From Clostridium sp. (GTDB lineage Bacteria; Bacillota; Clostridia; Clostridiales; Clostridiaceae), in assembly GCA_031292145.1 (NCBI GenBank), contig JARLHR010000211.1, positions 1 through 47,799 on the forward strand: DNA of 47,799 bases. The letters are read 5' to 3'. Both the position numbers and the translations under genes were made by a program. Position 1 is the first letter of the stretch. Each line of letters begins with the position of its first letter. Below are positions 943 through 45,902 of the stretch, one piece after another. The notes beneath the pieces are model-generated. The model was not told where the DNA came from. It saw only the letters and a list, made by a program, of their open reading frames with translations, and ran no database searches.

Positions 943-5082
<4,140 letters not shown>

Positions 5083-29084: not shown

Positions 29085-29090
29085 TTGCTT

Positions 29091-30290
29091 ATGATAAGTG
29101 TAGGAATTGATGTATCAAAAGAAAAAAGTACAGTATGTATCTTAAAACCATACGGCGAGATCGTCAGATCTCCATATGAGATTACACATACGGAAAGTCA
29201 GATGGCGGAATTAGCATTGATGATAAAATGTTTTGATGATGAAGTAAGAGTTATAATGGAGGCAACAGGTAATTATCATTTACCAGTGCTTAGTTTTCTT
29301 AAAGAACATGGAATTTTTGTAGCTGTTATTAATCCGTTGATAATGAAAAAATATTCTAACATAATTCTTAGAAAAGGAAAAACAGATAAGCTAGATTCTA
29401 TAAAGATTGCCAATTATGGTTTGGATAATTGGTTTCATTTAACTAATCATGAGTCTAGTAAAGACGTTTATGTGCAGCTACGTCTTCTTGGAAGACAGTA
29501 CGGGCACTACATAAAACTCAAGATAGAAAGCAAATTCTCCTTAACTACAATGCTTGATTATACAATGCCAGGAATTAAAACAGCATTGAAGAGTCGTTCT
29601 GATAAACCAGAAAAAGATAAATTAAATGATTTTGTAGAAGAATACTGGCATTATGATAATATTACACAAAAAAGTAAAAAACAATTTATTAACAGTTATA
29701 AAACTTGGGCAAAAAAGAAGGGATATCACCAAAGCGAAGTGAAAGCCATAAAGATATATGACTTAGCTCAGCAAGGAATCTCTACCTTATCTTCCAATGC
29801 TCCATAGACCAAAATGTTAGTATTGGAAGCAGTTCGAGTTCTTCGTGAAATAGATAAAACTCTTGCATTGATTTTATCACAAATGCAGGAATTAGCAAAA
29901 TCTTTAAAGGAGTACACTGTTGTTCGTGAAATGAGTGGAGTGGGTGACATTATCGCACCGAGACTTATAGCAGAGATAGGTGATATTAGAAGATTTCATA
30001 GTGGAAAGGCATTGATAGCTTATGCAGGTATAGATGCACCTCCATATCAATCAGGTCAGTTTACAGGAACACGTCGACGAATTTCAAAAAGAGGATCATC
30101 GGTATTAAGAAAAACTGGATATGAAGTAATGAAATGTCTTAAAAGTAATAAACCCGACGCGGACGCAGTGTATTTATTTATAATAAAAAAAGAAGCTGAG
30201 GGAAAGGCATCTAAAGTTGCCAAAATAGCTGGATTGAATAAGTTTCTGAGAATTTACTATGCAAGAGTGAAAGAAGTATATAAAAATTAA
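29091..30290 (+). pseudogene. IS110-family transposase interrupted by an amber codon
   Basis: The frame from ATG 29091 (GGAGG six bases upstream) to 30290 would encode 399 codons, but codon 239 (29805-29807) is TAG. Before it lies the RuvC-like DEDD domain: GIDVSKEKS with Asp7, MEATGNYH, and GKTDKLDSIKIA. After it, in the same frame, lies the Tnp domain with GVGDIIAPRLIAEIGDIRRF and the serine motif ISKRGSSVLR. Both parts look well preserved, so the stop is recent; a CAG-to-TAG change is likely. Without read-through the two domains are separated and the element should be inactive. An internal ATG at 29814 could restart translation. Confidence 0.9.
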
Positions 30291-30598: not shown

Positions 30599-31447
30599 CT
30601 AAAATGGATATACATAAGAAGTATCTGGATTAGGATCTTTTTCAATTTGCTCGGCAACTATAATTGGATCCACCTCATCTCCAGAAGTATTAGTTTTAAT
30701 TTTTCCTTTTACTTTTATCCAGGCGCCATTATCGAAAGATCCTAGATTGTTATCATCACATTCAATTCCTGCAACTTGTAGGTCAGCAGCACAGCACACC
30801 ATCATAAATCTACTTAGTATAAATTCATTTACTTTTAAATCTAAATCTTTACCTTTATATACGAAACCTGACATTTCTATTTCTTTACCTATATATTTAT
30901 TAGGATTTCCTAGAATCTCATCAAGAGAAAGTACAAAATTTTTAGGATTCACTTGTATAATATTATTTTCAATATCTAACTGATTTTTATCAACTTTGCC
31001 TTCCCCGTCACTTTCAGTTTTTCCACTATATAATTCATAGGCTGAGTTAGAAAGCAGAGTATTCTTCAAATCATTATTTTGATTGGAAGGGTTATTTGAA
31101 CTTTTAGAAAAATCAGTATTTGATGAAGTATTAGAATTTATATTTACATCACCTGTTGTAACTGCGGAGTTTGTATTAGTATTTTGCATAAAAAATGTCA
31201 TGATTAATGGAATTATAAAAATCATATAATTTTTAAGTTTGATTTTTTTCTTTTTATTGCGAAAGCTGTCTGTAATTAAAAATAGTGCAATTATAAACAT
31301 TGATATCATTCCAAAGATTACAAATGGAATTATTCTTGGATGTACATACATTATTATTTCATTATTGCTAATAATTCTAAAGTAAAATGCTGAAAAGCCT
31401 AATAATATCAATATCTTAATAATTATATCTAAATTTAATTTTTTCAT
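30599..31447 (-). CDS. TIGR03943/DUF1980-family membrane protein (YcgQ-like)
   Basis: 282 residues from ATG 31447 (AGGAG upstream; ATG 31456 directly abuts it). Three N-terminal hydrophobic segments (within 1-95), a Ser/Asn-rich linker, then the soluble C-terminal domain with VNPKNFVLSLDEILGNPNKYIGKEI and the characteristic RFMMVCCAADLQVAGI, whose Cys pair may bind metal. In many Firmicutes this family is encoded beside a COG0701 permease and COG0523 GTPases, as here, where it lies 54 bases after the GTPase-permease fusion. The two probably form one transport unit; a metal substrate is inferred from the zinc-type neighbours. Confidence 0.87.
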   Translation of the reverse strand: MKKLNLDIIIKILILLGFSAFYFRIISNNEIIMYVHPRIIPFVIFGMISMFIIALFLITDSFRNKKKKIKLKNYMIFIIPLIMTFFMQNTNTNSAVTTGDVNINSNTSSNTDFSKSSNNPSNQNNDLKNTLLSNSAYELYSGKTESDGEGKVDKNQLDIENNIIQVNPKNFVLSLDEILGNPNKYIGKEIEMSGFVYKGKDLDLKVNEFILSRFMMVCCAADLQVAGIECDDNNLGSFDNGAWIKVKGKIKTNTSGDEVDPIIVAEQIEKDPNPDTSYVYPF

Positions 31448-31510
31448 ATTATTCATCTCCTAATTAAAGTATCCTATAATAAAATATACTAACAAGTAAT
31501 TCTTAATATT

Positions 31511-33124
31511 CTAGAGTGATTTTAGATTAATAAGAATGACAAATGATACAAGAAGAATAACAAATATTAATTTAAGTACAAACTTCTTTTTAAAACTGCC
31601 AAAAAGCATAATGGTGTTTTTAATATCCAGCATAGGGCCTGCTACTAGAAAACCCATTATTGAATTTATTGAAAATTGTTTTAAAAAGCCTTTTGCAATA
31701 AATGCATCTGAAGTTGAACAAACTGAAAGTAAGAAGGATAATAGCATCATTAATAAAAGTGAAATTCTGCTATCCTTTGGAACAAACATATTATTATTTA
31801 TGGATACTACAGTTTGAAAAATACTAGATAAAAAAGTACCAATAATCATAAATTTACCTATATTAAAAAATTCATCTCCTGCATGAATAAATACTGCTTT
31901 AATCTTTTTCAATTTACTCTTTGAATAAACAGAGCTATCATCACAAAAGCCACAGTTACATTCAATGATAGTATCATCATTTTTTAAAATATTCTCATTT
32001 TTCTTTGTGCAAAACTGCATAATTAAACCTACTAAAATAGAGATTATTATTCCAGCAGTTATCCTATAAATTACTACTGATTTCATTCCTTGAAAAGCAT
32101 ATATAGTTGAAATAATTGCTATTGGATTTACTATTGGTGCTGCGAGCATAAAAGTAACTCCAGCTGCTATCGGTATTTTCTTTTTTATAAGGCCCTTAAC
32201 AACAGGGATTGTCCCACAATCACATATTGGAAATAGTAAACCTGCTAAAGCAGCGATTATGCACGATAAAAAAATATTCTTTGGAAATATCTTGATAAAG
32301 GTTTCTCTGGATATACAAATTTGTATTATTGAAGATACAAAACTTCCAACTAAGATGAAGGGAAAGCCTTGAATCAAGATACTTATAAATACAGTATAAA
32401 ATCTTTTAAACTCATCATAATATTTATTATATATACTAGGATCAGACATTGATAAAGTAACTAAAAAGATAAATAAAAACATTAGTAGACTTATATAAAA
32501 TAATGTTTTTAAATAAAAATTTTGATTTTGGCTAATTTCTATATATTCTTCTTGATAAAGTTCTTTTATATTTAATGAAGAAACATGCTCTAGAAGATGA
32601 GCTGTTTCATTAATATTTCTAATTTCTTTTTGAATATTTCTAAATTCCTTTTTGTTTAATTTGCTCACATTATTTAAGACTATAGTATTGCTATTAAAAA
32701 TATGAGGAACTAGCATACCTTTCATATTTCTAAAAAGTATAGAAAAATTTTTTACATCAATTACAGTTATTATGTCATCAATTCCACATAATTTTTTTAT
32801 ATTTTTATCATTGAATATATTAATAATAGCATTAGAATTTTCCATGCCATTTACTTCGATGAAAATTCTATCTGGAGAATATTCGCATATGATTTGTTTT
32901 ATATAATTTGCAGTAATATTATCATTTCCATCATTTTTTATTGCAATAATTTTATTGTTTCTTTTTGAATTATTAAAGTCAGATCTTATTTCACATTTGC
33001 CAAACTCATTTTGAATAATCACAATGGTTTCATTTTGTAGTTCATCACTTTTAAGCATGGAATTTATGAAATTAGTTTTACCTGATCCAAGAAAGCCTAA
33101 TACTATTTCAACTTTTATATTCAT
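31511..33124 (-). CDS. Fusion of COG0523-like GTPase domain and COG0701-type permease
   Basis: 537 residues, GAGAGGTG ribosome site. Residues 1 to about 195 are a G3E/COG0523 P-loop domain with Walker A GFLGSGKT (10-17) and the IIQNEFG strand, but the CxCC metal motif expected near residue 64 is absent (AIKNDGNDNI instead) and the NKxD guanine motif is not recognisable. Residues about 205-537 form a multi-helix permease with PICDCGTIPVVKGLIKKKIP (Cys301, Cys303), LAAPIVNPIAI, a cytoplasmic-type loop with CNCGFC (Cys389, 391, 394), and CSTSDAF near 469. These proteins are usually separate, so a fusion couples a GTPase-like switch to a permease. A truncated sister copy lies at 38448. Substrate: metal likely, unproven. 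Confidence 0.88.
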   Translation of the reverse strand: MNIKVEIVLGFLGSGKTNFINSMLKSDELQNETIVIIQNEFGKCEIRSDFNNSKRNNKIIAIKNDGNDNITANYIKQIICEYSPDRIFIEVNGMENSNAIINIFNDKNIKKLCGIDDIITVIDVKNFSILFRNMKGMLVPHIFNSNTIVLNNVSKLNKKEFRNIQKEIRNINETAHLLEHVSSLNIKELYQEEYIEISQNQNFYLKTLFYISLLMFLFIFLVTLSMSDPSIYNKYYDEFKRFYTVFISILIQGFPFILVGSFVSSIIQICISRETFIKIFPKNIFLSCIIAALAGLLFPICDCGTIPVVKGLIKKKIPIAAGVTFMLAAPIVNPIAIISTIYAFQGMKSVVIYRITAGIIISILVGLIMQFCTKKNENILKNDDTIIECNCGFCDDSSVYSKSKLKKIKAVFIHAGDEFFNIGKFMIIGTFLSSIFQTVVSINNNMFVPKDSRISLLLMMLLSFLLSVCSTSDAFIAKGFLKQFSINSIMGFLVAGPMLDIKNTIMLFGSFKKKFVLKLIFVILLVSFVILINLKSL

Positions 33125-33149
33125 ATTTCACCTCTCAATACTCATTAGA

Positions 33150-33586
33150 TTATTCACATACCTCTTCAAATAAATCTTTTAATCTAGACTTACTAAATTC
33201 TTCTTTTATTTCTACTGCCCTGTAATAAAACTATCTGCATTATGATTATGATTATGATGCTTTATATATGCAGCATTTCTTAAATTAGGCATATTAAAGA
33301 AAATAACAAGTCAAAGATGCGGCATATATTTTGTGTCAGACAAGGAGGTATGTTTGACTAATAGCGGGCTATTAGATGAATATACCAACGAAGTCTGACA
33401 CGAAATAGATTAGCATACTGACTTGTTATTTATTTTAATGTGCCTTATTATATTAATATTTTCCATCAACTATGATTTCATTTTCTTTATCTATTCTTAT
33501 GTCTTTCTCAAAATTTATTGTTTTGCTAAAATATATTTTATTTAAAAACTCTCTAATTATTTTCGCCTGTGGATTTATTTTTTTCG
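33150..33586 (-). pseudogene. COG0523 GTPase remnant split by a palindromic element
   Basis: Two pieces on the minus strand match the C-terminal half of the intact COG0523 protein at 37443. Piece one (33586-33446) reads INPQAKIIREFLNKI; piece two (33286-33150) reads NLRNAAYIKHHNHNHNADS, then after a frameshift EEFSKSRLKDLFEEV and a stop. A 159-base palindromic element separates them. The N-terminal GTPase half is missing: the remnant begins at the very stop codon of the ABC permease gene, indicating a deletion. The piece ends 25 bases before the GTPase-permease fusion, the same order as 37443-38448. Confidence 0.85.
33287..33445. mobile_element. MITE-like palindromic element
   Basis: Imperfect inverted arms of about 54 bases (33287-33341 and 33393-33445), starting AGGCAyATTAAA and containing AATAACAAGTCA and TGTCAGAC, flank a centre with the perfect hairpin CTAATAGC-GG-GCTATTAG (33358-33375). 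It has no coding capacity and interrupts the COG0523 pseudogene. A single related arm occurs at 40253-40299. Confidence 0.8.
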
Positions 33587-34375
33587 GTTAATTACTCTTG
33601 AAAAGAAATATATAAGCCCTCCTATTGCCGATACAAAAAATCCAATTGGCCATCCAGAGTAATAGGCTAAAATTAACGATATCCATACTGAAAATAATGA
33701 AAAGATTAAGGATAAAACCATAACGAATTTTGGATTACTTGTTATGTAAGCACTTGCACCAGTAGGAACAACAAGTAAACTAAAACAAAGTAATGCACCA
33801 ACTATAGGTACTGTAACGGCAGAAACTAATCCTAGTACCATCATGAACATTATTTCTATTAATCTAACAGATATTCCTCTTGATTCAGCAATATCTTTAG
33901 AAATAGACACAAGTAAAAGTGGCCTGTATAAGAAGATTATTCCTAAAAGGCAGATAACTCCTAAAATTGCTGTCTGAATTACTTGGGCATAGCTAATTCC
34001 TACGATTTGACCAAACAGAAGCGCATAAGCTCCTGCTGCATATTTATTGCTTATGCCCATAAATAATGCTCCCATTCCAAGAATGACAACAAGGCAGAGT
34101 GCAGTAATTATATCATTACGTTCTTTTCTGCTGAAAAGTCCAATTATTATTGCACCTCCAATTACAAATATAGATAATCCATACATAGGATTAATATTAA
34201 ATAATATCGCTGCAGCTCCTCCAGAAAATCCAGCCTGAGGTAAGGCATGAGATGCAAAGGAATCTCCTCTGATAACTACAAAAAAACCAATAAGAGCACA
34301 TAGCACAGCTATTATTGTTCCGCTAATCCAAGCGTGAATCATAAATGCCTCTGTAAATAGTCCGAGGTTATTCAT
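33575..34375 (-). CDS. Zinc/manganese-type ABC transporter permease 2
   Basis: 266 residues, about eight membrane helices, of the ZnuB/MntB (ABC-3) family. Family hallmarks are GFFVVIRGDSFASHALPQAGFSGGAAA near residues 26-52 and RGISVRLIEIMFMMVLGLVSAV with PIVGALL. Its start overlaps the end of permease 1 by eight bases, and both are in an operon with ATPase and binding protein. With permease 1 it would form a heterodimeric channel. A COG0523 remnant begins at its stop codon, so the C terminus may mark a deletion junction, although the length is normal. Confidence 0.92.
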   Translation of the reverse strand: MNNLGLFTEAFMIHAWISGTIIAVLCALIGFFVVIRGDSFASHALPQAGFSGGAAAILFNINPMYGLSIFVIGGAIIIGLFSRKERNDIITALCLVVILGMGALFMGISNKYAAGAYALLFGQIVGISYAQVIQTAILGVICLLGIIFLYRPLLLVSISKDIAESRGISVRLIEIMFMMVLGLVSAVTVPIVGALLCFSLLVVPTGASAYITSNPKFVMVLSLIFSLFSVWISLILAYYSGWPIGFFVSAIGGLIYFFSRVINRKK

Positions 34376-35267
34376 TAGATATCATCCCTCCTTTTTTGAT
34401 TTCCGGAAAGCTTACGAATTTCTCTTTTATTCTGGAAAGTACATAAAAAACTAATACAAGAACAGATATAAAAAAGCTCACAGGCCAGCCCCTTCCATAA
34501 GGAGGCCAATAGAAGCTGTCATAAGCTAGAACAACTCCAAGGCATACACTTAAAATTCCAATAACAGCTGATAATAACATTGCAAAATTCATTTTATGAG
34601 TAAGCCTCATAGCAGCTGCAGCGGGACCAATCAGGAGAGCACTACTTAAGAGAGAACCCATAATGAGTGAGCCTTCCTCAACTACAAAGGCTAATAGTAT
34701 TATAAATATAACGCCTATTAAAGTGATATTAACACCTCTGGTTTTTGCAAGATCAGAGTCTATAGAGCATAATAAAATGGGTCTATAGAAAATAGAAAAT
34801 ACAAGGATAGTAGCTATTGTAAGAAAAGCTACTACATATATTGTAGTAGGGTTAACCACAAAAATAGACCCAAATAAAATGAGCATAGGTTCGCTTGACT
34901 TTTGAGTAAGATGAGTATCGAAGTATAAAAATAATGCCTGCACACCTAAAGCAATTGATAGAACTACACCAGTAGATAAATCTTTTTCTTTGGCTTTAGT
35001 TCCTAAAAGTTCCACACCGATAGCTGCCAAAACTCCGAAACCAAAAAAGCCCCACAAGGAATTAATTCCAGATAAAAATATAATAGCTGCACCTGCACCA
35101 CCAAAATCCGCAATAGCATGAGCTGCAAATGTTTGACCTTTAATAATCACAAATACCCCTATAACTCCAGAGATGGCAGCAACAATGCTGCCAAGAATTA
35201 GAGCACGTAAAACTTGTGTACTTTCGAAAAAACCTGGTGCAAATAAAAAAGTTAAAAATTCTTTCAT
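34368..35267 (-). CDS. Zinc/manganese-type ABC transporter permease 1
   Basis: 299 residues from ATG 35267, which overlaps the ATPase stop by one base (TAATG) and has GGAGGTG six bases upstream. ABC-3 family permease with the hallmark GVFVIIKGQTFAAHAIADFGGAGAA and RGVNITLIGVIFIILLAFVVEEGSLIMGSLL; about eight or nine helices. It is a paralogue of permease 2, the two having probably arisen by duplication. It works with the ATPase at 35267-36100. Confidence 0.93.
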   Translation of the reverse strand: MKEFLTFLFAPGFFESTQVLRALILGSIVAAISGVIGVFVIIKGQTFAAHAIADFGGAGAAIIFLSGINSLWGFFGFGVLAAIGVELLGTKAKEKDLSTGVVLSIALGVQALFLYFDTHLTQKSSEPMLILFGSIFVVNPTTIYVVAFLTIATILVFSIFYRPILLCSIDSDLAKTRGVNITLIGVIFIILLAFVVEEGSLIMGSLLSSALLIGPAAAAMRLTHKMNFAMLLSAVIGILSVCLGVVLAYDSFYWPPYGRGWPVSFFISVLVLVFYVLSRIKEKFVSFPEIKKGGMISNE

Positions 35268-36100
35268 TAAAGCACCTCCGACTTTTTGCAATGGTAGTCA
35301 TCTACTGGGGAATATTGTTCACCTAATACTATGATTCTTCCTTTTACATTTAACACTTCTACTGGATAGCCATATAGTTTACTTAATACATCACTACGAA
35401 ATACCTCATTAACCTGTCCCATTACAGCATTTCCATCTGCTAAATATACAACTCTGTCCATTGCACCTAAAAGGGGATTCATATCATGAGCTACTAAAAT
35501 TACAGCTATACCTCTTTCAAGGCCTATACGTGATACTAAATTTATTATTTCATAAGCACTTTTAATGTCTAGGTTTGATAAAGGTTCATCTAGAAGAAGT
35601 ATTTTGGGATTTGTAAGCAAAGCTTGAGCTATAAGAAGTCTTTGCTGCTCTCCTCCAGATAGTTTCCCAACTGGTGCATCTGCATATCTCATTGCATCTA
35701 CTGCTTCTAATATTTCATTTACAAGTTTTTTTTTCTTTTTATTTGGAAAGGGAATTCCAAATTTATGTCCATCAAGACCAAGGGCTACTAAATCACGGCT
35801 TCTTAATGGAACATTAGGATCTAAAAATATTTTCTGAGGTACATATCCAATTATATGTTTTACATCCTTTTCTTTCCTACTAGAGATTATTACATTTCCA
35901 TTTGTAGGTTGTAATAAGCCTAAAATCACCTTAAGAAGTGTAGATTTTCCTGCTCCATTGGCACCAATGAGTCCTATAAATTCTCCTGGATACACGTTAA
36001 TATTTACATCTTTAAGTACTAAATGTTCACCAAAGCTTACTTTAATATTATCAAGAGACAATATAGGTTTTGATTGATTTAAGTTACTCTCATTTATCAT
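35267..36100 (-). CDS. Zinc/manganese-type ABC transporter ATPase
   Basis: 277 residues with Walker A GANGAGKST (46-54), Q-loop (YVPQKIF), signature LSGGEQQR, Walker B ILLLDEP and H-loop VAHD. Closest in style to ZnuC/MntB ATPases. Its ATG overlaps the binding-protein stop by four bases, showing translational coupling. A C-terminal extension (about 230-277) with HCKK may have a regulatory role. Confidence 0.94.
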   Translation of the reverse strand: MINESNLNQSKPILSLDNIKVSFGEHLVLKDVNINVYPGEFIGLIGANGAGKSTLLKVILGLLQPTNGNVIISSRKEKDVKHIIGYVPQKIFLDPNVPLRSRDLVALGLDGHKFGIPFPNKKKKKLVNEILEAVDAMRYADAPVGKLSGGEQQRLLIAQALLTNPKILLLDEPLSNLDIKSAYEIINLVSRIGLERGIAVILVAHDMNPLLGAMDRVVYLADGNAVMGQVNEVFRSDVLSKLYGYPVEVLNVKGRIIVLGEQYSPVDDYHCKKSEVL

Positions 36101-37074
36101 GAAAGTTTCTCCGTAGAAACGCCATCTTTTAAAGCTTTAACTATGTTTTCAGCTTCAGCCTGCATCCAAGTTTGATATGTGTGGTTTGGAGGCATAGTTT
36201 CATATACACCTACAATAGGAATATTATTATCTTTTGCAAGCTGTAATAGAGCAGTAGTTGAATCATCAATAGCTTGTTGATTGTATAAGAATACTTTTAC
36301 TTGTTTGTTTTTAAGAAGGTCTTCCTGTATTTTTACATTTTGTGGAGAAGGATCAGTATCATTCATTATTGAAGCTTGATAATCCCATGGAGTCTTTACT
36401 TCTAAATTAGCAGCTTCTAGTAAGTAATCCGCTACAGGTTCTGTAACAGCAACACCTGTCTTAGCATACGAATCTTGAATTTGTTTTAAATCATCGTTGT
36501 AAGCTTTTAGTGAATCATTAAATTTGCTTAAATTACCTTCAAAGTAATCTTTTTTATCAGGCAACTGATTTTCTAGATTTTTTGCAATAAGCTTTGCAAC
36601 CTGTGGCATAGTATCGGGTTTATACCAAAGATGAGGATTTTTTGTATCATCACCATAGTTAAGAGATTTAGCTACATCAATTACTGTTCTATTTGAATTT
36701 GAAGAACTTTCTTCAAGTTTGTCCATAAAGTCATCATAACCTAAACCATTTTCAACAATTAATGTTGCTTTACTTACAGCCTCTGAATCTTTAGTATTTG
36801 ATTCATAAGAATGAGGGTCTGTACCAACATCACTCATAATTGCTGTTACTGACACATAATCCCCACCAATTTGTTTTATAACATCAGCATATTCATTTTC
36901 TGCACCAACAGCTTGAACTACTTTATCATCAGTCTTTGAACTAGATGAATTCGAATTAGAAGAAGAGTTTTGAGCACTACATCCTGCTACTCCTAAGAAT
37001 AACGAAAGTGAAAGCGCAGATACTTTTAATACACTTTTAGCTTTGCTTTTGATAATAAAATCATATTGTTTCAT
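36097..37074 (-). CDS. Zinc/manganese-type ABC transporter binding lipoprotein
   Basis: 325 residues from ATG 37074, preceded by AGGTGGTG; the frame extends to 37116 but that ATG lies in the operator. Lipobox GVAGC gives Cys32. It is a ZnuA/TroA-type A-1 cluster binding protein. Likely metal ligands are His88 (TDPHSYE) and His148 (KNPHLWY); the third position, usually His, appears as Glu212 in VTEPVADY, as in a Firmicutes subgroup. The His-rich loop of many ZnuA proteins is absent. First gene of the four-gene operon, with a palindromic operator at its promoter. Zinc is favoured over manganese because of the neighbouring COG0523 gene. Confidence 0.92.
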   Translation of the reverse strand: MKQYDFIIKSKAKSVLKVSALSLSLFLGVAGCSAQNSSSNSNSSSSKTDDKVVQAVGAENEYADVIKQIGGDYVSVTAIMSDVGTDPHSYESNTKDSEAVSKATLIVENGLGYDDFMDKLEESSSNSNRTVIDVAKSLNYGDDTKNPHLWYKPDTMPQVAKLIAKNLENQLPDKKDYFEGNLSKFNDSLKAYNDDLKQIQDSYAKTGVAVTEPVADYLLEAANLEVKTPWDYQASIMNDTDPSPQNVKIQEDLLKNKQVKVFLYNQQAIDDSTTALLQLAKDNNIPIVGVYETMPPNHTYQTWMQAEAENIVKALKDGVSTEKLS

Positions 37075-37095
37075 TTTCACACCACCTATAAAATT

Positions 37096-37120
37096 GTAAA
37101 TGCATTTCGTTTGCATTTAC
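37096..37120 (-). promoter_or_regulatory. Candidate Zur/Fur-family operator of the ABC operon
   Basis: GTAAATGCA-TTTCGTT-TGCATTTAC, nine-base perfect arms, covers the predicted start point of the ABC operon. Size and AT-rich symmetry are those of a Fur-family (Zur-like) site. A weaker AAATGAAAATGCAAATTT sequence at about 37405-37422 precedes the divergent COG0523 gene. Confidence 0.65.
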
Positions 37121-37370: not shown

Positions 37371-37442
37371 ATATTTTTTTATATACACGAATATAATTTA
37401 TTTAAATGAAAATGCAAATTTGTCGCAATAAGGAGAGTTTAC

Positions 37443-38420
37443 ATGGAAACAAAAATAGATATAATATCTGGATTTTTAGGTGCAGGAAAAACTACTTTAA
37501 TAAAAAAATTAATTGATGAGAAGTTTAAAGACGAAAAAATAGCAATTATAGAAAATGAATTTGGTGAAGTTTCAATTGACGGAGATATTTTAAAAGAGTT
37601 GAAGCTTAATATAAAAGAAATAAAATCAGGCTGCATATGTTGTAGTCTTGCAGGTGATTTAAAAGATTCTGTTAAAAGTATAATAGAATTATATTCTCCA
37701 GAAAGAATATTAATTGAACCTTCAGGAGTGGCAAAATTAAGCGATGTGATTAAAGCATGTGAAAGTTTAGAGGATGATTGTAATATTAAAATTAATATGT
37801 TAGTTACAGTTTTAGATGTTTTTAATGCAAAAATATATATAAAAAATTTTGGGGAATTTTATAAAGATCAAATTAAAAATGCAAAAACAATTATTTTAAC
37901 TAGAATAGAAAATGTTTCTGAAGAAAAAATTAAAGAAACAGTAAGAATAATAGAAGAAATAAATCCACATGCGAAAATAATTAGAGAAGTTTTAAATAAA
38001 ATAGACTTTAGTGAAATAATAAATAAAAAATTATTTAATTCAGAGGAAGAAGAAAAGCAGCTTAAAAATTATAAATTAATTCGTAAAAATAATTTAAGAA
38101 ATGCTACATATATAAAGTATCACAATCATAATGCAGATAGTATGTTTAGTACTTGGTCATTAGAAACAAAAAAAGAATTTAGTGAGTATAAATTAAAAGA
38201 ATTATTTGAAGAAATTACAGAAGACAAAGATTATGGTTTTATACTAAGAGGTAAAGGCATAGTAAAATTAGATACAGGAAAGAGCATTCAATTTCATTAC
38301 GTACCTGGAAAATTTGCAATAAGTGATATAAATGAACAAGAAATTAGTAAGATATGCATTATTGGAAGTAATATAAATAAAAATAAGTTAAATTACTTAT
38401 TTAAAGGGATTTATAAATAA
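37443..38420 (+). CDS. COG0523-family GTPase (putative metal chaperone)
   Basis: 325 residues, AAGGAG ribosome site. Walker A GFLGAGKT (10-17), then IENEFGEVSIDG, and the metal-binding CxCC motif GCICC with Cys64, 66 and 67, then a C-terminal CobW_C-like domain containing a His-rich YIKYHNHNADS segment. Such GTPases insert or allocate metals, often zinc under starvation, in the cytoplasm. It is divergent from the zinc-type ABC operon and upstream of the truncated fusion gene. The NKxD motif is altered (LTRIE). A decayed relative of this gene lies at 33150-33586. Confidence 0.9.
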   Translation: METKIDIISGFLGAGKTTLIKKLIDEKFKDEKIAIIENEFGEVSIDGDILKELKLNIKEIKSGCICCSLAGDLKDSVKSIIELYSPERILIEPSGVAKLSDVIKACESLEDDCNIKINMLVTVLDVFNAKIYIKNFGEFYKDQIKNAKTIILTRIENVSEEKIKETVRIIEEINPHAKIIREVLNKIDFSEIINKKLFNSEEEEKQLKNYKLIRKNNLRNATYIKYHNHNADSMFSTWSLETKKEFSEYKLKELFEEITEDKDYGFILRGKGIVKLDTGKSIQFHYVPGKFAISDINEQEISKICIIGSNINKNKLNYLFKGIYK

Positions 38421-38447: not shown

Positions 38448-39524
38448 ATGAATACAAAAGTAGAAATAGTGATTGGATTTCTTGGCTCTGGAAAAACGAG
38501 TTTTATAAATTCTAAGTTACAAGGAGAAGAATTACAAGATGGAACTATTGTTGTTATCCAAGATGAATTTGGAAACTGTGAAATAAAAAATAGCTTAAAT
38601 AATCAAAACCAAATTATCGTAATTAAAACTGGTGAAGATGAAGAAATCAGTGCAGATTATATAAAAAAAATTATAAGTATATATACTCCAAATAGAATTT
38701 TTATTGAAACAAATGGCATGAAAGAGTCTACGCATATTATTAATATATTTAATGATAAAGAGATAAGAAAAATATGTAAGATTGATGATATAATAAGTGT
38801 AATTGATGTAATAAAATTTCCTATGTATTTTCGAAATATGAAAAGTATAGTTAGTACTCATATTTTTAATAGTGAAACGATAATTTTAAACAATACAAAT
38901 CAGTTAGAAAAAAAAGAATTTTTAAGCATACAAAAAGAAATTGAAAATATTAATGAAACAGCCAATATGTTGGAACATGTCAGCGGAGTAAATAATGGAA
39001 AATCAAACGAAGAAGAGTATGAAGGGATAGAAAGAGATAATATTTCGATTTTTAATGCTTTTTTCTATGCAAGTCTTGGAATATTTTTATTTATCGTAAT
39101 TACACTGGTGTCATTAAATATTAAAATATATGGTATATATTTAGATAGATTTAAAAAATTTTATGATGTGTTTATAAGCATATTGATTCAAGGGTTTCCT
39201 TTCATTCTTATTGGGAGCTTTGTATCTTCAATAATACAAATTTGCATATCTAGGGACACGTTTATTAAAATATTTTCAAAGAACATTTTTTTATCTTGTA
39301 TAATTGCAGCTTTTGCAGGTCTATTATTCCCAATATGCGACTGTGGGACAATCCCTATAGTTAAAGGACTTATGAAAAAGAAAATTCCTATAGCAGCAGG
39401 AATTACTTTTATGCTAGCAGCACCAATTGTAAATCCAATAGCAATTATTGCAACTATCTATGCTTTTCCGGAAATGAAATCTGTAGCAATTTACAGATAT
39501 GACAAATATGAAAATAATTCTTGA
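38448..39524 (+). pseudogene. Truncated second copy of the GTPase-permease fusion
   Basis: 358 codons. It follows the COG0523 gene by 27 bases. The first about 345 residues are closely similar to the protein at 31511-33124, including GFLGSGKT, the lack of CxCC, PICDCGTIPIVKGLMKKKIP and LAAPIVNPIAI. After SVAIYR the homology stops and eight unrelated codons follow to TGA, within the promoter of the TetR gene. The second half of the permease and the CNCGFC loop are missing, so transport is unlikely. A deletion joined this gene to the TetR region. Confidence 0.85.
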
Positions 39525-39574: not shown

Positions 39575-40153
39575 ATGGGACGAAGTAGGGAGTTTGATGA
39601 AAATGTAGTTCTCCATAAAGCAATGGAATTATTTTGGGAACAAGGCTATGAAAAGACATCTATGAACGATTTAGTAGAGCATATGGGAATACATCGTAGA
39701 AGTTTATATGATACCTTCGGCGATAAGCATACATTATTTTTAAAAATAATAGATTGTTACGAAAAATTAATAGAAGAAAAAATACAAGCTGTAATTTTAC
39801 ATGCGGAAACATCAAAACAAGCGATACAATTTATCTTTGATTTTATTATTGAAGGGTATGAGGATAGGCAATGGGGGTGCTTAATTGTAAATTCAGCAAC
39901 TGAGATGGCTCTTCGAGATAAAGAGGTAGAAGAAAAGACAAAAGAAGCATTTATGCAAAGTGAGCATCTTCTTGCAGATCTTGTTCGTAAAGGGCAACAA
40001 ACAGGTCAATTTTCCTGTGATTATGATGCTGAAGTTTTAGCAGAAATCTTGCAAAATACTTTGCTTGGAATCCGTGTGCTTTTAAGAACCTCAGCGAGCA
40101 AAGAAAAAATGCATCGTATAGCTGATTTTTTTGTAAATCTGTTAAATAAATAA
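39575..40153 (+). CDS. TetR/AcrR-family regulator
   Basis: 192 residues from ATG 39575 (AGGAGGG upstream). The N terminus GRSREFDENVVLHKAMELFW, then GYEKTSMNDLVEHMGIHRRSLYDTFGDKHTLF is a classic TetR helix-turn-helix. It likely represses itself and the OYE/nitroreductase genes downstream, since a similar 14-base palindrome occurs at its own promoter and twice before the OYE gene. Its last residues (FFVNLLNK) and 3' flank are partly duplicated at 40337-40430. Confidence 0.92.
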   Translation: MGRSREFDENVVLHKAMELFWEQGYEKTSMNDLVEHMGIHRRSLYDTFGDKHTLFLKIIDCYEKLIEEKIQAVILHAETSKQAIQFIFDFIIEGYEDRQWGCLIVNSATEMALRDKEVEEKTKEAFMQSEHLLADLVRKGQQTGQFSCDYDAEVLAEILQNTLLGIRVLLRTSASKEKMHRIADFFVNLLNK

Positions 40154-40214
40154 TTTTTTATACTAATTAGAATGATAATTCTCAAAAACGTGTTTATATT
40201 ATTCTAGAATCCTG
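40143..40214 (+). repeat. Direct repeat copy A with TetR operator
   Basis: About 70 bases, starting in the end of the TetR gene, are strongly similar to 40361-40430. The operator palindrome AGAATGATAATTCT is at 40169-40182. Confidence 0.8.
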
Positions 40215-40252: not shown

Positions 40253-40299
40253 TAAGGCACATGAAAATATATAACAAGTCCAAAGTTGCCAATATAAGT
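40253..40299. repeat. Solo arm of the MITE-like element
   Basis: TAAGGCACATGAAAATATAT and ACAAGTCCAAAGTTGCC match one arm of the 33287-33445 element. No opposite arm is seen; a small GCAGC-ATA-GCTGC hairpin follows at 40308-40320. Confidence 0.6.
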
Positions 40300-40336: not shown

Positions 40337-40369
40337 GAGATTTTTTTCTTGAATCTATTGAATAAATAA
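40337..40369 (+). pseudogene. C-terminal remnant of a duplicated TetR gene
   Basis: Ten codons, EIFFLNLLNK and stop, match the end of the TetR product at 39575-40153 (ADFFVNLLNK), followed by a copy of its 3' flank. This shows that the TetR gene was once duplicated in tandem and the second copy was largely removed. Confidence 0.7.
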
Positions 40370-40430
40370 TTTTTTACACTAATTAGAATGATTGTTCTCA
40401 AAAATGTCCTTATGTTTCTTTAAAATCCTG
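40361..40430 (+). repeat. Direct repeat copy B with TetR operator
   Basis: Partner of 40143-40214; operator AGAATGATTGTTCT at 40385-40398, about 100 bases before the OYE gene, where it can control that gene. Confidence 0.8.
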
Positions 40431-44960: not shown

Positions 44961-45902
44961 TTATTGTGCCGCCAGTGCCCCGCGGATAATGGCTTGCTCC
45001 AGTACAACCGCAGCGGCTGTACCCACTAGCGTAATGAGCTCGTCGCTCGACAGGTTACTGGTGTATGAACCCAGGGCGAGGCAGAAAATTGTGTCACCGT
45101 CCCACTGCGTGTGGTTTGGGGAGATGGCTCGGGCCATTCCGTCTTCGGCGAGTGCTGCCACCCGGTTGGCTTCTGCTTTAGTCAGCCGCGCTGTTGTAGT
45201 TACTAGTGCGATTGTTGTATTCCTGGTCTGCCTGGACTTCGGTACCGGCACACCGGACAGCATCGCCTGGGTCTGGTTGACAAAGGTTCCGTCAGGATTT
45301 AGCGCTCCTACGACGATACGTCCATCACACCATACATCTCCGACGGGATTGACCACCGCCAGGGCCGCCACCACGGGGCCGCCTGGAATGCTAATGGAGG
45401 CAGTACCAAGTCCTGACTTCATTGGCCTACCGTAGATTTTTCCCGCCGTTGCTCCCGCTCCGGCACCCACATTTCCTTCCGGCACGGGACATGCATTTGC
45501 AGCCTGGCAGGCGGCGTAGGCAAGGGTCGCATTAGGCGGGGGTGAGCCCTTGGCGTAGGGGAGGTCGTAGATGACCGCCGCGGGTACAAGAGGTACATCG
45601 TCGATCCCTTGCTTAACGAGCCAGCGCATCACACCGCCTGCGGCCGGCAGCCCGAAGAAACTGCCGCCGGTGAGGAGGACGCCATATACAGGATACTCTG
45701 CAGTACCGGGGCGGATGATATCGGTATTCTGTGTGCCGGGACTACCTCCGCTTACGGATACGCCGGGGACTGCCCCATCCGGGCAGAGAATCACCGTGCA
45801 TCCCGTACGGCCGCTTTTGTCCTCAGCATTCCCCACTAGGATACCGGGAACATCAGTAAGTCCTCCCATAGTGGTTGTTTGCATTTTTCCATATTTCACC
45901 AT
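44961..45902 (-). CDS. P1-family (S58, DmpA/BapA-like) peptidase
   Basis: 313 residues, AAAGGAG ribosome site. Family hallmarks: GGLTDVPGILVGNAEDKSGRTGCTV, then GGSPGTQNTDIIRPG, LLTGGSFFGLPAAGGVMRWL, and NTTIALVTTTARLTKAEANR with the autocleavage/nucleophile region, then HTQWDGDTIFCLALG. These Ntn-type enzymes cleave themselves and act as aminopeptidases or on beta-amino peptides and amides. Codons are rich in G and C, unlike every other gene in the window, so recent acquisition from a GC-richer donor is likely. It has its own terminator. Confidence 0.92.
   Translation of the reverse strand: MVKYGKMQTTTMGGLTDVPGILVGNAEDKSGRTGCTVILCPDGAVPGVSVSGGSPGTQNTDIIRPGTAEYPVYGVLLTGGSFFGLPAAGGVMRWLVKQGIDDVPLVPAAVIYDLPYAKGSPPPNATLAYAACQAANACPVPEGNVGAGAGATAGKIYGRPMKSGLGTASISIPGGPVVAALAVVNPVGDVWCDGRIVVGALNPDGTFVNQTQAMLSGVPVPKSRQTRNTTIALVTTTARLTKAEANRVAALAEDGMARAISPNHTQWDGDTIFCLALGSYTSNLSSDELITLVGTAAAVVLEQAIIRGALAAQ

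What the first reader, a model, noticed from the sequence alone, without database searches (positions are those of the whole stretch)
31511..33124. GTPase-permease fusion lacking the CxCC metal motif
A G3E/COG0523-like P-loop domain (GFLGSGKT) is fused to a COG0701-type permease with PICDCGT and a CNCGFC loop. The fused GTPase lost the CxCC motif and NKxD, while the separate COG0523 protein next door keeps CxCC. This suggests division of labour: one protein carries metal, the other gates a transporter by nucleotide state. With the DUF1980 protein it could be an uncharacterised metal transport or efflux machine.
Basis: partly seen in the sequence, partly recalled or inferred. Interest (0 to 1): 0.72.

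Follow-up and report, generated by a model that had tools for sequence, protein, structure and literature searches.

The report
Zinc-operon permease with a built-in GTPase
In this Clostridium-like genome a metal-chaperone-type GTPase that has lost its metal-binding loop is joined to a membrane permease; relatives of the joined gene recur in other bacterial families, often beside zinc-uptake genes, so it looks like a real but unstudied part of how bacteria handle scarce zinc.

Summary
The fusion is real: one intact 537-codon frame, cobW/G3E domain (residues 5-177) plus ArsP_1 permease (239-530). It is no join artefact: intact fusions recur three times in this genome, in six Clostridium records, in 13 sampled genomes of the class and 4 more of the phylum; congeners carry the parts as two genes. 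The CxCC loop is cleanly deleted in 57 of 57 such GTPase domains, while 49 of 49 COG0523 proteins keep it; an S-to-N change in EPSG separates the groups equally. The same CxCC-less domain is fused to the DUF1980 C-terminal domain in 30 loci without a permease. So a distinct CxCC-less G3E branch works with CxCC-bearing COG0523 and CCxxD-bearing DUF1980. The permease-fused form is tied to zinc: znu or Fur-family genes lie within 6 kb in 10 of 14 loci versus 0 of 30 for the other fusion; some are same-strand znu-fur-COG0523-fusion-DUF1980 runs; an operator-like repeat precedes two of these operons and a znuCB-type one here. Best reading: a zinc-starvation transport and hand-off module whose fused domain docks or gates rather than carries metal. 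Metal, direction and docking are inferred; one published case hints at the opposite regulation.

The parts
31511..33124 (-). GTPase-permease fusion gene, 537 aa (cobW/G3E domain residues 5-177 + ArsP_1 permease residues 239-530)
   Evidence: three intact copies in this genome
32594..33112 (-). CxCC-less G3E P-loop domain
   Evidence: PF02492 match; CxCC loop deleted
33074..33097 (-). Walker A GFLGSGKT (residues 10-17)
31535..32410 (-). ArsP_1 (COG0701) permease domain
   Evidence: PF03773 match
32216..32224 (-). Cys-Asp-Cys of PICDCGT (residues 301-303), invariant in 23 aligned fusions
31943..31960 (-). CNCGFC loop codons; not conserved across the family
30599..31456 (-). DUF1980 / TIGR03943 partner subunit, 285 aa: three hydrophobic segments (a weak fourth inside the C-domain), then DUF1980_C with CCAAD
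33125..33583 (-). Gap between znuB and the fusion: remnants of a COG0523 gene (best match 33481-33583) and a repeat element (33283-33449)
33575..34375 (-). znuB-type ABC permease
   Evidence: PF00950
34368..35291 (-). second znuB-type ABC permease
   Evidence: PF00950
35267..36100 (-). znuC-type ATPase
   Evidence: PF00005; AztA and ZnuC models among the best NCBIfam hits, below their curated cut-offs
36097..37116 (-). znuA-type metal-binding lipoprotein
   Evidence: PF01297 5e-48
37412..37428 (+). Operator-like imperfect inverted repeat ATGCAAATTTGTCGCAA, 14 nt before the COG0523 start codon
37443..38420 (+). COG0523 metallochaperone-type GTPase with CICC (residues 64-67) and CobW_C
38448..39524 (+). 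Second copy of the fusion, truncated inside the permease (homology ends at about 39496)

Best explanation
The fusion is the membrane component of a zinc-starvation module of three proteins: (1) a COG0523 GTPase that can hold metal in its CxCC, (2) the fusion, whose CxCC-less G3E domain is a non-carrier P-loop partner tethered to a YcgR-type permease with an invariant C-D-C site, and (3) a DUF1980 (YcgQ-type) subunit whose CCxxD domain probably faces outside. I think metal, most likely zinc, passes the permease and is handed between the external CCxxD domain and the internal CxCC protein, and that the fused domain docks the metal-carrying COG0523 at the pore and ties opening to nucleotide state. 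Shown here: the fusion, lineage-wide loss of CxCC, co-occurrence of the parts, genomic linkage to zinc-type uptake genes. Suggested: shared operator. Inferred: zinc as substrate, docking and gating, the outside location of DUF1980_C, and inward rather than outward transport (the least certain step).
For: Architecture: 14 of 60 fetched DUF1980_C places of the class carry the fusion, 13 of 14 with a CICC-bearing COG0523 alongside; intact fusions also in 4 other genomes of 398 sampled in the phylum. Split form (four genes) in this genome and two congeners (L008, L070, L075). CxCC loop gapped in 57 of 57 fused or split domains, present in 49 of 49 COG0523; EPSG serine N in 57 of 57, S in 49 of 49; the two sets lie on opposite sides of one branch, SH-aLRT 98. 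CC..D kept in 23 of 23 DUF1980 proteins with the permease fusion and 30 of 30 of the other fusion, but 1 of 11 stand-alone forms. Zinc link: znuA/znuB-type or Fur-family gene within 6 kb in 10 of 14 permease-fusion loci versus 0 of 30 for the DUF1980 fusion, Fisher 4e-7. Same-strand znu-fur-COG0523-fusion-DUF1980 runs in L048 and L175, variants in L174 and L177. The operator-like pattern lies at 4 places in 6.34 Mb, reversed control 0: two before COG0523-fusion operons (circular, the pattern came from these), one before an ABC-3-family znuCB-type operon, one inside a gene. In Bacillus anthracis, Zur binds upstream of an ArsP_1 permease gene and of yciC (PMC6336718, passages).
Against: The same paper reads the Zur boxes of the B. 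anthracis permease, from their position, as a sign of positive regulation by Zur, which would mean expression when zinc is ample and favours export. The nearest named models are exporters, though far below their cut-offs (84.7 of 300, 73.5 of 325 bits). Two loci have cobalt-type cbi genes as neighbours (L014, L176). ABC-3 transporters may also carry manganese. The DUF1980 fusion (30 loci) has no permease and no recurring neighbours, so transport is not the only job of this GTPase branch. The cis COG0523 gene is decayed beside intact fusions in the window, L006, L013 and L014. The window's own intact fusion and L006 have no operator-like site upstream. In the 10-of-14 versus 0-of-30 comparison 7 of the 30 stretches were cut short by contig ends and none of the 14. 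Positive-inside counts for the permease disagree among relatives. No structure or complex could be predicted.
Confidence: 0.42

Rival explanations
1. It is an exporter: the permease removes a thiophilic metal or metalloid (Cu, Zn, Cd, organoarsenical) as ArsP and SO_0444 do, and the fused domain energises or gates efflux.
For: ArsP_1 family; nearest named models are the SO_0444 Cu/Zn efflux and SaoE efflux families; in B. anthracis the Zur boxes of an ArsP_1 permease were read as positive regulation (PMC6336718, passage); a cation-efflux (CDF) gene lies in the L007 stretch.
Against: The model hits are far below their cut-offs. Linkage to znu-type and Fur-family genes and the operator 14 nt before the COG0523 start codon, a place that suits repression, suggest expression when zinc is scarce. 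I noticed no ars genes among the neighbours, but only some neighbours were run through Pfam.
Confidence: 0.25
2. Metallation rather than transport is the core job: the CxCC-less G3E domain and the DUF1980_C domain form a hand-off station for COG0523, and the permease anchors it or moves a ligand.
For: The same GTPase branch is fused directly to DUF1980_C, without permease, in 30 of 60 fetched class loci, 29 of 30 with a CICC-bearing COG0523 in the stretch; no hydrophobic segment in the three tested; CC..D in 30 of 30.
Against: Does not explain the invariant C-D-C of the permease and its fusion in a zinc-uptake setting.
Confidence: 0.2
3. The substrate is cobalt or nickel (or another metal) rather than zinc.
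For: cbiM-type genes beside the fusion in L014 and L176; the operator-like repeat resembles the Streptomyces Nur box tTGCaa-N5-ttGCAA (PMC3919588, passage); FeoB or NRAMP-like genes near some copies (by eye; 77).
Against: znuA/znuB-type genes within 6 kb in 6 of 14 class loci and 0 of 30 in the comparison set, and in L174, L175 and L177.
Confidence: 0.12
4. The fused frame is an artefact of a frameshift or assembly join between two genes.
For: Separate small-GTPase and permease genes exist in L008, L070 and L075.
Against: Intact fusions recur three times in this genome, in six Clostridium records and in other families, with the junction at a like place in 23 aligned fusions.
Confidence: 0.01

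Closest known systems
COG0523 / CobW metallochaperones (YjiA, YciC/ZagA, ZNG1; the last two names recalled)
   Same: PF02492 domain with Walker A; the only PDB relatives of the fusion by sequence at E 0.01 are YjiA entries (E 1e-16)
   Different: CxCC loop deleted, EPSG to ExNG, no CobW_C domain, C-terminal permease
Bacillus subtilis YcgR/YcgQ and Streptococcus ScfA/ScfB permease pairs
   Same: ArsP_1 permease with TIGR03943/DUF1980 partner (their family assignment is partly recalled); permeases without GTPase share C[DE]C in 29 of 29 and S[LV]C in 25 of 29. scfAB: function called unknown in PMC5584981 (passages)
   Different: No GTPase domain on the permease; COG0523 not mentioned in the passages seen
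Bacillus anthracis BAS1632 (ArsP_1 permease) and BAS1633 (YciC)
   Same: COG0523 protein and ArsP_1 permease, both with Zur-bound upstream DNA (PMC6336718, passages)
   Different: Separate genes; the permease is predicted there to be activated, not repressed, by Zur; no CxCC-less G3E domain in the passages seen
FeoB ferrous iron transporter (works like; recalled)
   Same: A G domain covalently joined to a metal permease
   Different: Different GTPase class and unrelated permease (recalled)
SRP54/FtsY pair (works like; recalled)
   Same: Two related SIMIBI GTPases, one carrying cargo and one at a membrane channel, form a heterodimer
   Different: Cargo is a protein; no heterodimer has been tested here
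SO_0444 Cu/Zn exporter and SaoE models
   Same: Same permease superfamily
   Different: Scores far below curated cut-offs

Membership tests
COG0523 (CobW) metallochaperone, for the fused domain | PF02492 domain with Walker A GxxxxGK[ST] | tested here: met
   77.7 bits versus cut-off 20.7; Walker A
COG0523 (CobW) metallochaperone, for the fused domain | CxCC metal motif, stated as common to all members by Haas 2009 (PMC2770081, passage) | tested here: not met
   Loop gapped in 57 of 57 fused or split domains aligned
COG0523 (CobW) metallochaperone, for the fused domain | CobW_C domain (PF07683) | tested here: not met
   No hit in the fusion; hit in the separate COG0523
COG0523, for 37443-38420 | PF02492 + CxCC + CobW_C | tested here: met
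   137.9 and 33.9 bits (cut-offs 20.7 and 22), CICC at 64
ArsP_1 permease (PF03773) | Pfam gathering score | tested here: met
   203.6 versus 32.3 bits
SO_0444 Cu/Zn efflux transporter (NF033936) | Curated score of 300 | tested here: not met
   84.7 bits
SaoE efflux transporter (NF040736) | Curated score of 325 | tested here: not met
   73.5 bits
TIGR03943 putative permease subunit, for 30599-31456 | Curated score of 88.8 | tested here: met
   156 bits
Zur regulon | Operator shared with zinc-uptake genes of the same genome | tested here: inconclusive
   Pattern before two COG0523-fusion operons and a znuCB-type operon; a 3-mismatch match before a znuA, one of 171 such places; the window's fusion itself lacks a site
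Zur regulon | Repression by zinc-bound Zur | not testable with these tools
   needs expression or binding data

The most novel reading that the evidence does not exclude
A receptor-type G3E GTPase: the CxCC-less domain has given up metal binding to become the membrane-bound receptor for a metal-loaded COG0523, pairing with it as a heterodimer at the mouth of the permease, much as the SRP receptor pairs with SRP at a protein channel. The same receptor was joined to a permease in one line and to a CCxxD metal-acceptor domain in another, so one docking device serves both transport and intracellular hand-off.
Probability: 0.25. Interest if true: 0.85.

Novelty: new variant of a known kind. Interest (0 to 1): 0.6.

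Why it matters
How COG0523 proteins contribute to zinc homeostasis is described as unclear (PMC6103462, passage), and the ScfAB permease pair has no known function (PMC5584981, passages). A natural fusion that physically joins the two families, with a matching CxCC-less GTPase branch, makes both questions testable with one protein set: does a metallochaperone dock on a membrane permease, and does nucleotide state control it?

Tried and rejected
Frameshift or assembly join: rejected. CNCGFC loop as metal site: dropped, not conserved. NKxD loss as specific to the fused protein: dropped. PICDCGT as special to the fusion: dropped, C[DE]C is general to this permease type. Plasmid records: 307 of 72,556 matched, 0 over at least 80% of the fusion. 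Defence-system models: no hit. Solved structures: only YjiA entries for the GTPase part; the one DUF1980 hit, E 0.06 (7x3h), was taken as chance. A palindrome scan with a G+C filter found no shared operator; a shared-motif search then did. Recurring neighbours of the DUF1980 fusion: no protein cluster spanned more than 5 of 30 loci, and that one was general ABC ATPases. Topology by hydropathy: of 23 DUF1980 proteins with the permease fusion, 21 came out N-in, 1 N-out, 1 undecided; 15 had three segments, 7 a weak fourth inside the C-domain, 1 only one; the permease gave both answers. The tree was the quick method with long branches flagged; which of fused and split came first was not settled. 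Classes were set by profiles seeded with CxCC-less sequences, so they are not fully independent of the motif; the Fur profile was seeded with four of the loci that it then found, all Pfam-confirmed. One split-type row (L009, 101 aa, cut by the locus end) was but left out as too short.

Full report
OBSERVATION. The window is one contig (C112) of a 6.34 Mb genome in 282 contigs; its nearest named relative among the loci found is Clostridium sp. LS (fusion 93% identical in the best segment). ORF 31511-33124 (-) encodes 537 aa without a stop: PF02492 cobW at residues 5-177 and PF03773 ArsP_1 at 239-530, both above cut-off. Downstream on the same strand is a TIGR03943/DUF1980 protein (30599-31456; 156 bits, cut-off 88.8). 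Upstream on the same strand are two znuB-type permeases, a znuC-type ATPase and a znuA-type lipoprotein (33575-37116). Divergent from znuA is a COG0523 protein with CICC and CobW_C (37443-38420), followed by a second copy of the fusion cut off inside the permease (38448-39524; homology to L007 ends at about 39496). Between znuB and the intact fusion lie remnants of another COG0523 gene (best 33481-33583) and a repeat element. So the window looks like two inverted copies of one operon around znuACBB, each decayed in a different gene.

NOT AN ARTEFACT. Three intact fusions exist in this genome. The named-genome scan gave six further loci, all Clostridium, 67-93% identical in the best segment, each an open frame of 534-538 aa. 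In the class, 85 of 291 sampled genomes hold a DUF1980_C match. I fetched 60 of the listed places, none from this genome; the rest were not opened. They sort into: 14 with the GTPase-permease fusion (13 genomes); 30 with the same GTPase fused to DUF1980_C and no permease; 2 with GTPase and permease as separate genes (L008 in this genome is a third case); 3 with permease and DUF1980 only; 11 with DUF1980_C alone. Of 398 genomes sampled in the phylum, 5 (this one included) show a match over the whole fusion in one open frame; at most three candidates a genome were scored, so this is a lower bound.

THE GTPASE BRANCH. I aligned 106 domains: 49 COG0523-type, 24 permease-fused (the truncated window copy included), 30 DUF1980-fused, 3 split; one further split-type fragment cut by a locus end was left out. 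The G-C-I-C-C stretch is present in 49 of 49 COG0523 and a gap in 57 of 57 others. The serine of EPSG is S in 49 of 49 and N in 57 of 57. The Walker lysine is kept in 106 of 106; the fourth Walker position is G in 49 of 49 COG0523 but E or D in 41 of the 57 others (13 permease-fused, 28 DUF1980-fused, 0 split). On the tree the 49 form one side of a branch (SH-aLRT 98) and the 30 DUF1980-fused one side of another (93) (quick method, several long branches). So loss of CxCC belongs to a lineage and is a clean deletion, not decay of one protein. NKxD is a poor contrast: 1 of 49 COG0523 has its N.

PARTNERS. A CICC-bearing COG0523 lies in the stretch of 13 of 14 permease fusions and 29 of 30 DUF1980 fusions, mostly as the next gene (L049's and L078's partners score lower, 194 and 71 bits, than the rest). 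The seven genomes that I checked because none was adjacent (G146, G181 and those of L010-L014) each have a COG0523-like match elsewhere (CxCC not checked there). Remnants of a cis COG0523 gene sit next to intact fusions in the window and L006 and in L013 and L014, so in Clostridium the partner may work in trans. CC..D is present in 23 of 23 DUF1980 proteins with the permease fusion, 30 of 30 DUF1980 fusions and 1 of 11 stand-alone forms (L104); with a separate permease it is 5 of 6, L008 being the exception. Hydropathy gives N-in for 21 of 23 DUF1980 proteins of the permease-fusion type and three segments in 15, so the CCxxD domain would be outside, while three DUF1980 fusions tested have no segment. 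This is crude.

PERMEASE. C301, D302, C303, E418 and C469 are invariant in 23 aligned fusions; a CxC...C loop is missing in 10 of 23. Permeases without GTPase share C[DE]C in 29 of 29 and S[LV]C in 25 of 29. The pore type is therefore that of YcgR-like permeases; for the streptococcal ScfAB pair the function is unknown (PMC5584981, passages).

ZINC. In the 14 class loci with the permease fusion, znuA or znuB lies within the stretch in 6, a Fur-family gene in 6, either in 10; for the 30 DUF1980-fusion loci the figures are 0, 0 and 0 (Fisher 4e-4 and 4e-7). Caveats: 7 of the 30 and none of the 14 stretches are cut by contig ends; znu calls rest on profiles seeded from the window and L009, spot-checked by Pfam. 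L048 runs znuA-znuC-znuB-fur-COG0523-fusion-DUF1980 on one strand. Of the four phylum-level loci, L175 has that order, L174 has znuA divergent, L177 has the znu-fur block after DUF1980; L176 has CbiM-type genes and a Fur-family gene. The Fur-family genes of L045, L050, L053 and L060 pass Pfam but no NCBIfam equivalog cut-off, so which metal they sense is open. L014 has cbiMQO upstream.

OPERATOR. Comparing upstream regions gave TGCAA-N5-TTGCA-like repeats. A pattern written from the window and its relatives hits 4 places in the whole genome and its reversed control none: 37412-37428 before COG0523, the like place before the L007 operon, a perfect palindrome before an ABC-3-family znuCB-type pair, and one inside a coding frame. 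The first two are circular; the third is independent. A looser pattern has 171 places against 70 for its control and includes one just before a znuA. In the genus set a site scoring at least 10 of 12 lies within 300 bp of 9 of 11 fused-type operon heads; singly these have background chances of 0.02-0.07, and the window's intact fusion and L006 have none; split-type operons have it in 1 of 3. The motif resembles the Nur box of Streptomyces (PMC3919588, passage). In Bacillus anthracis, Zur binds upstream of an ArsP_1 permease gene and of yciC; the authors infer repression for yciC but, from box position, positive regulation for the permease (PMC6336718, passages), which speaks against a simple starvation-induced importer.

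MECHANISM. I commit to a zinc-starvation transport and hand-off module: external CCxxD domain, permease C-D-C site, fused CxCC-less G3E domain as dock and gate, CxCC COG0523 as carrier. Shown: architecture, motif rules, linkage. Inferred: metal, direction, docking, gating. Inward flow is favoured by the zinc-uptake setting, outward by the names of known relatives and the B. anthracis inference. The DUF1980 fusion without permease suggests that docking and hand-off may be the common function.

NOVELTY. Each family is known; the CxCC-less branch and its two fusions were not found described in the ten full-text searches made, which cover only openly licensed papers and were seen as listings, with passages read in eight papers. 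A term count found neither 'permease' nor 'fused' in the main text of Haas 2009. I call it a new variant of a known kind.

Noticed in passing
window 33283-33449; also 40253-40280: A roughly 165-bp element with inverted ends; a 28-bp end pattern matches 214 places (100 + 114) in the genome within 3 mismatches, reversed control 0. Looks like a MITE-type family.
   Followed up: partly
window 38448-39524 and 33125-33583: Apparently two inverted copies of the COG0523-fusion operon around znuACBB, each decayed in a different gene.
   Followed up: yes
L061-L103 (30 of the loci): CxCC-less G3E domain fused to DUF1980_C, with COG0523 in 29 of 30 stretches, no permease, no recurring neighbours; its function is open.
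   Followed up: partly
L055, L058, L059, L063-L065, L073, L081, L092, L094: Ten stand-alone DUF1980_C proteins with one hydrophobic segment and no CC pair.
   Followed up: no
L104:5965-9057: A DUF1980_C lipoprotein-like gene (with CCGND) directly after a znuA-znuC-znuB run.
   Followed up: no
L006, L013, L014: Remnants of COG0523 beside intact fusions: the cis partner seems to have decayed repeatedly in Clostridium.
   Followed up: partly
window 29085-30290: IS110-type transposase in two frames separated by a stop.
   Followed up: no
window 44961-45902: Peptidase S58 gene in a G+C-rich island (up to 61% against about 25-33% nearby), suggesting horizontal transfer.
   Followed up: no
window 40126-40214 and 40342-40430: Two 89-nt direct repeats, 82% alike, around the gap between a TetR-type gene and an NADH:flavin oxidoreductase gene.
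   Followed up: no
window 943-5082: Large glycoside hydrolase family 32 protein with choline-binding-type repeats.
   Followed up: no
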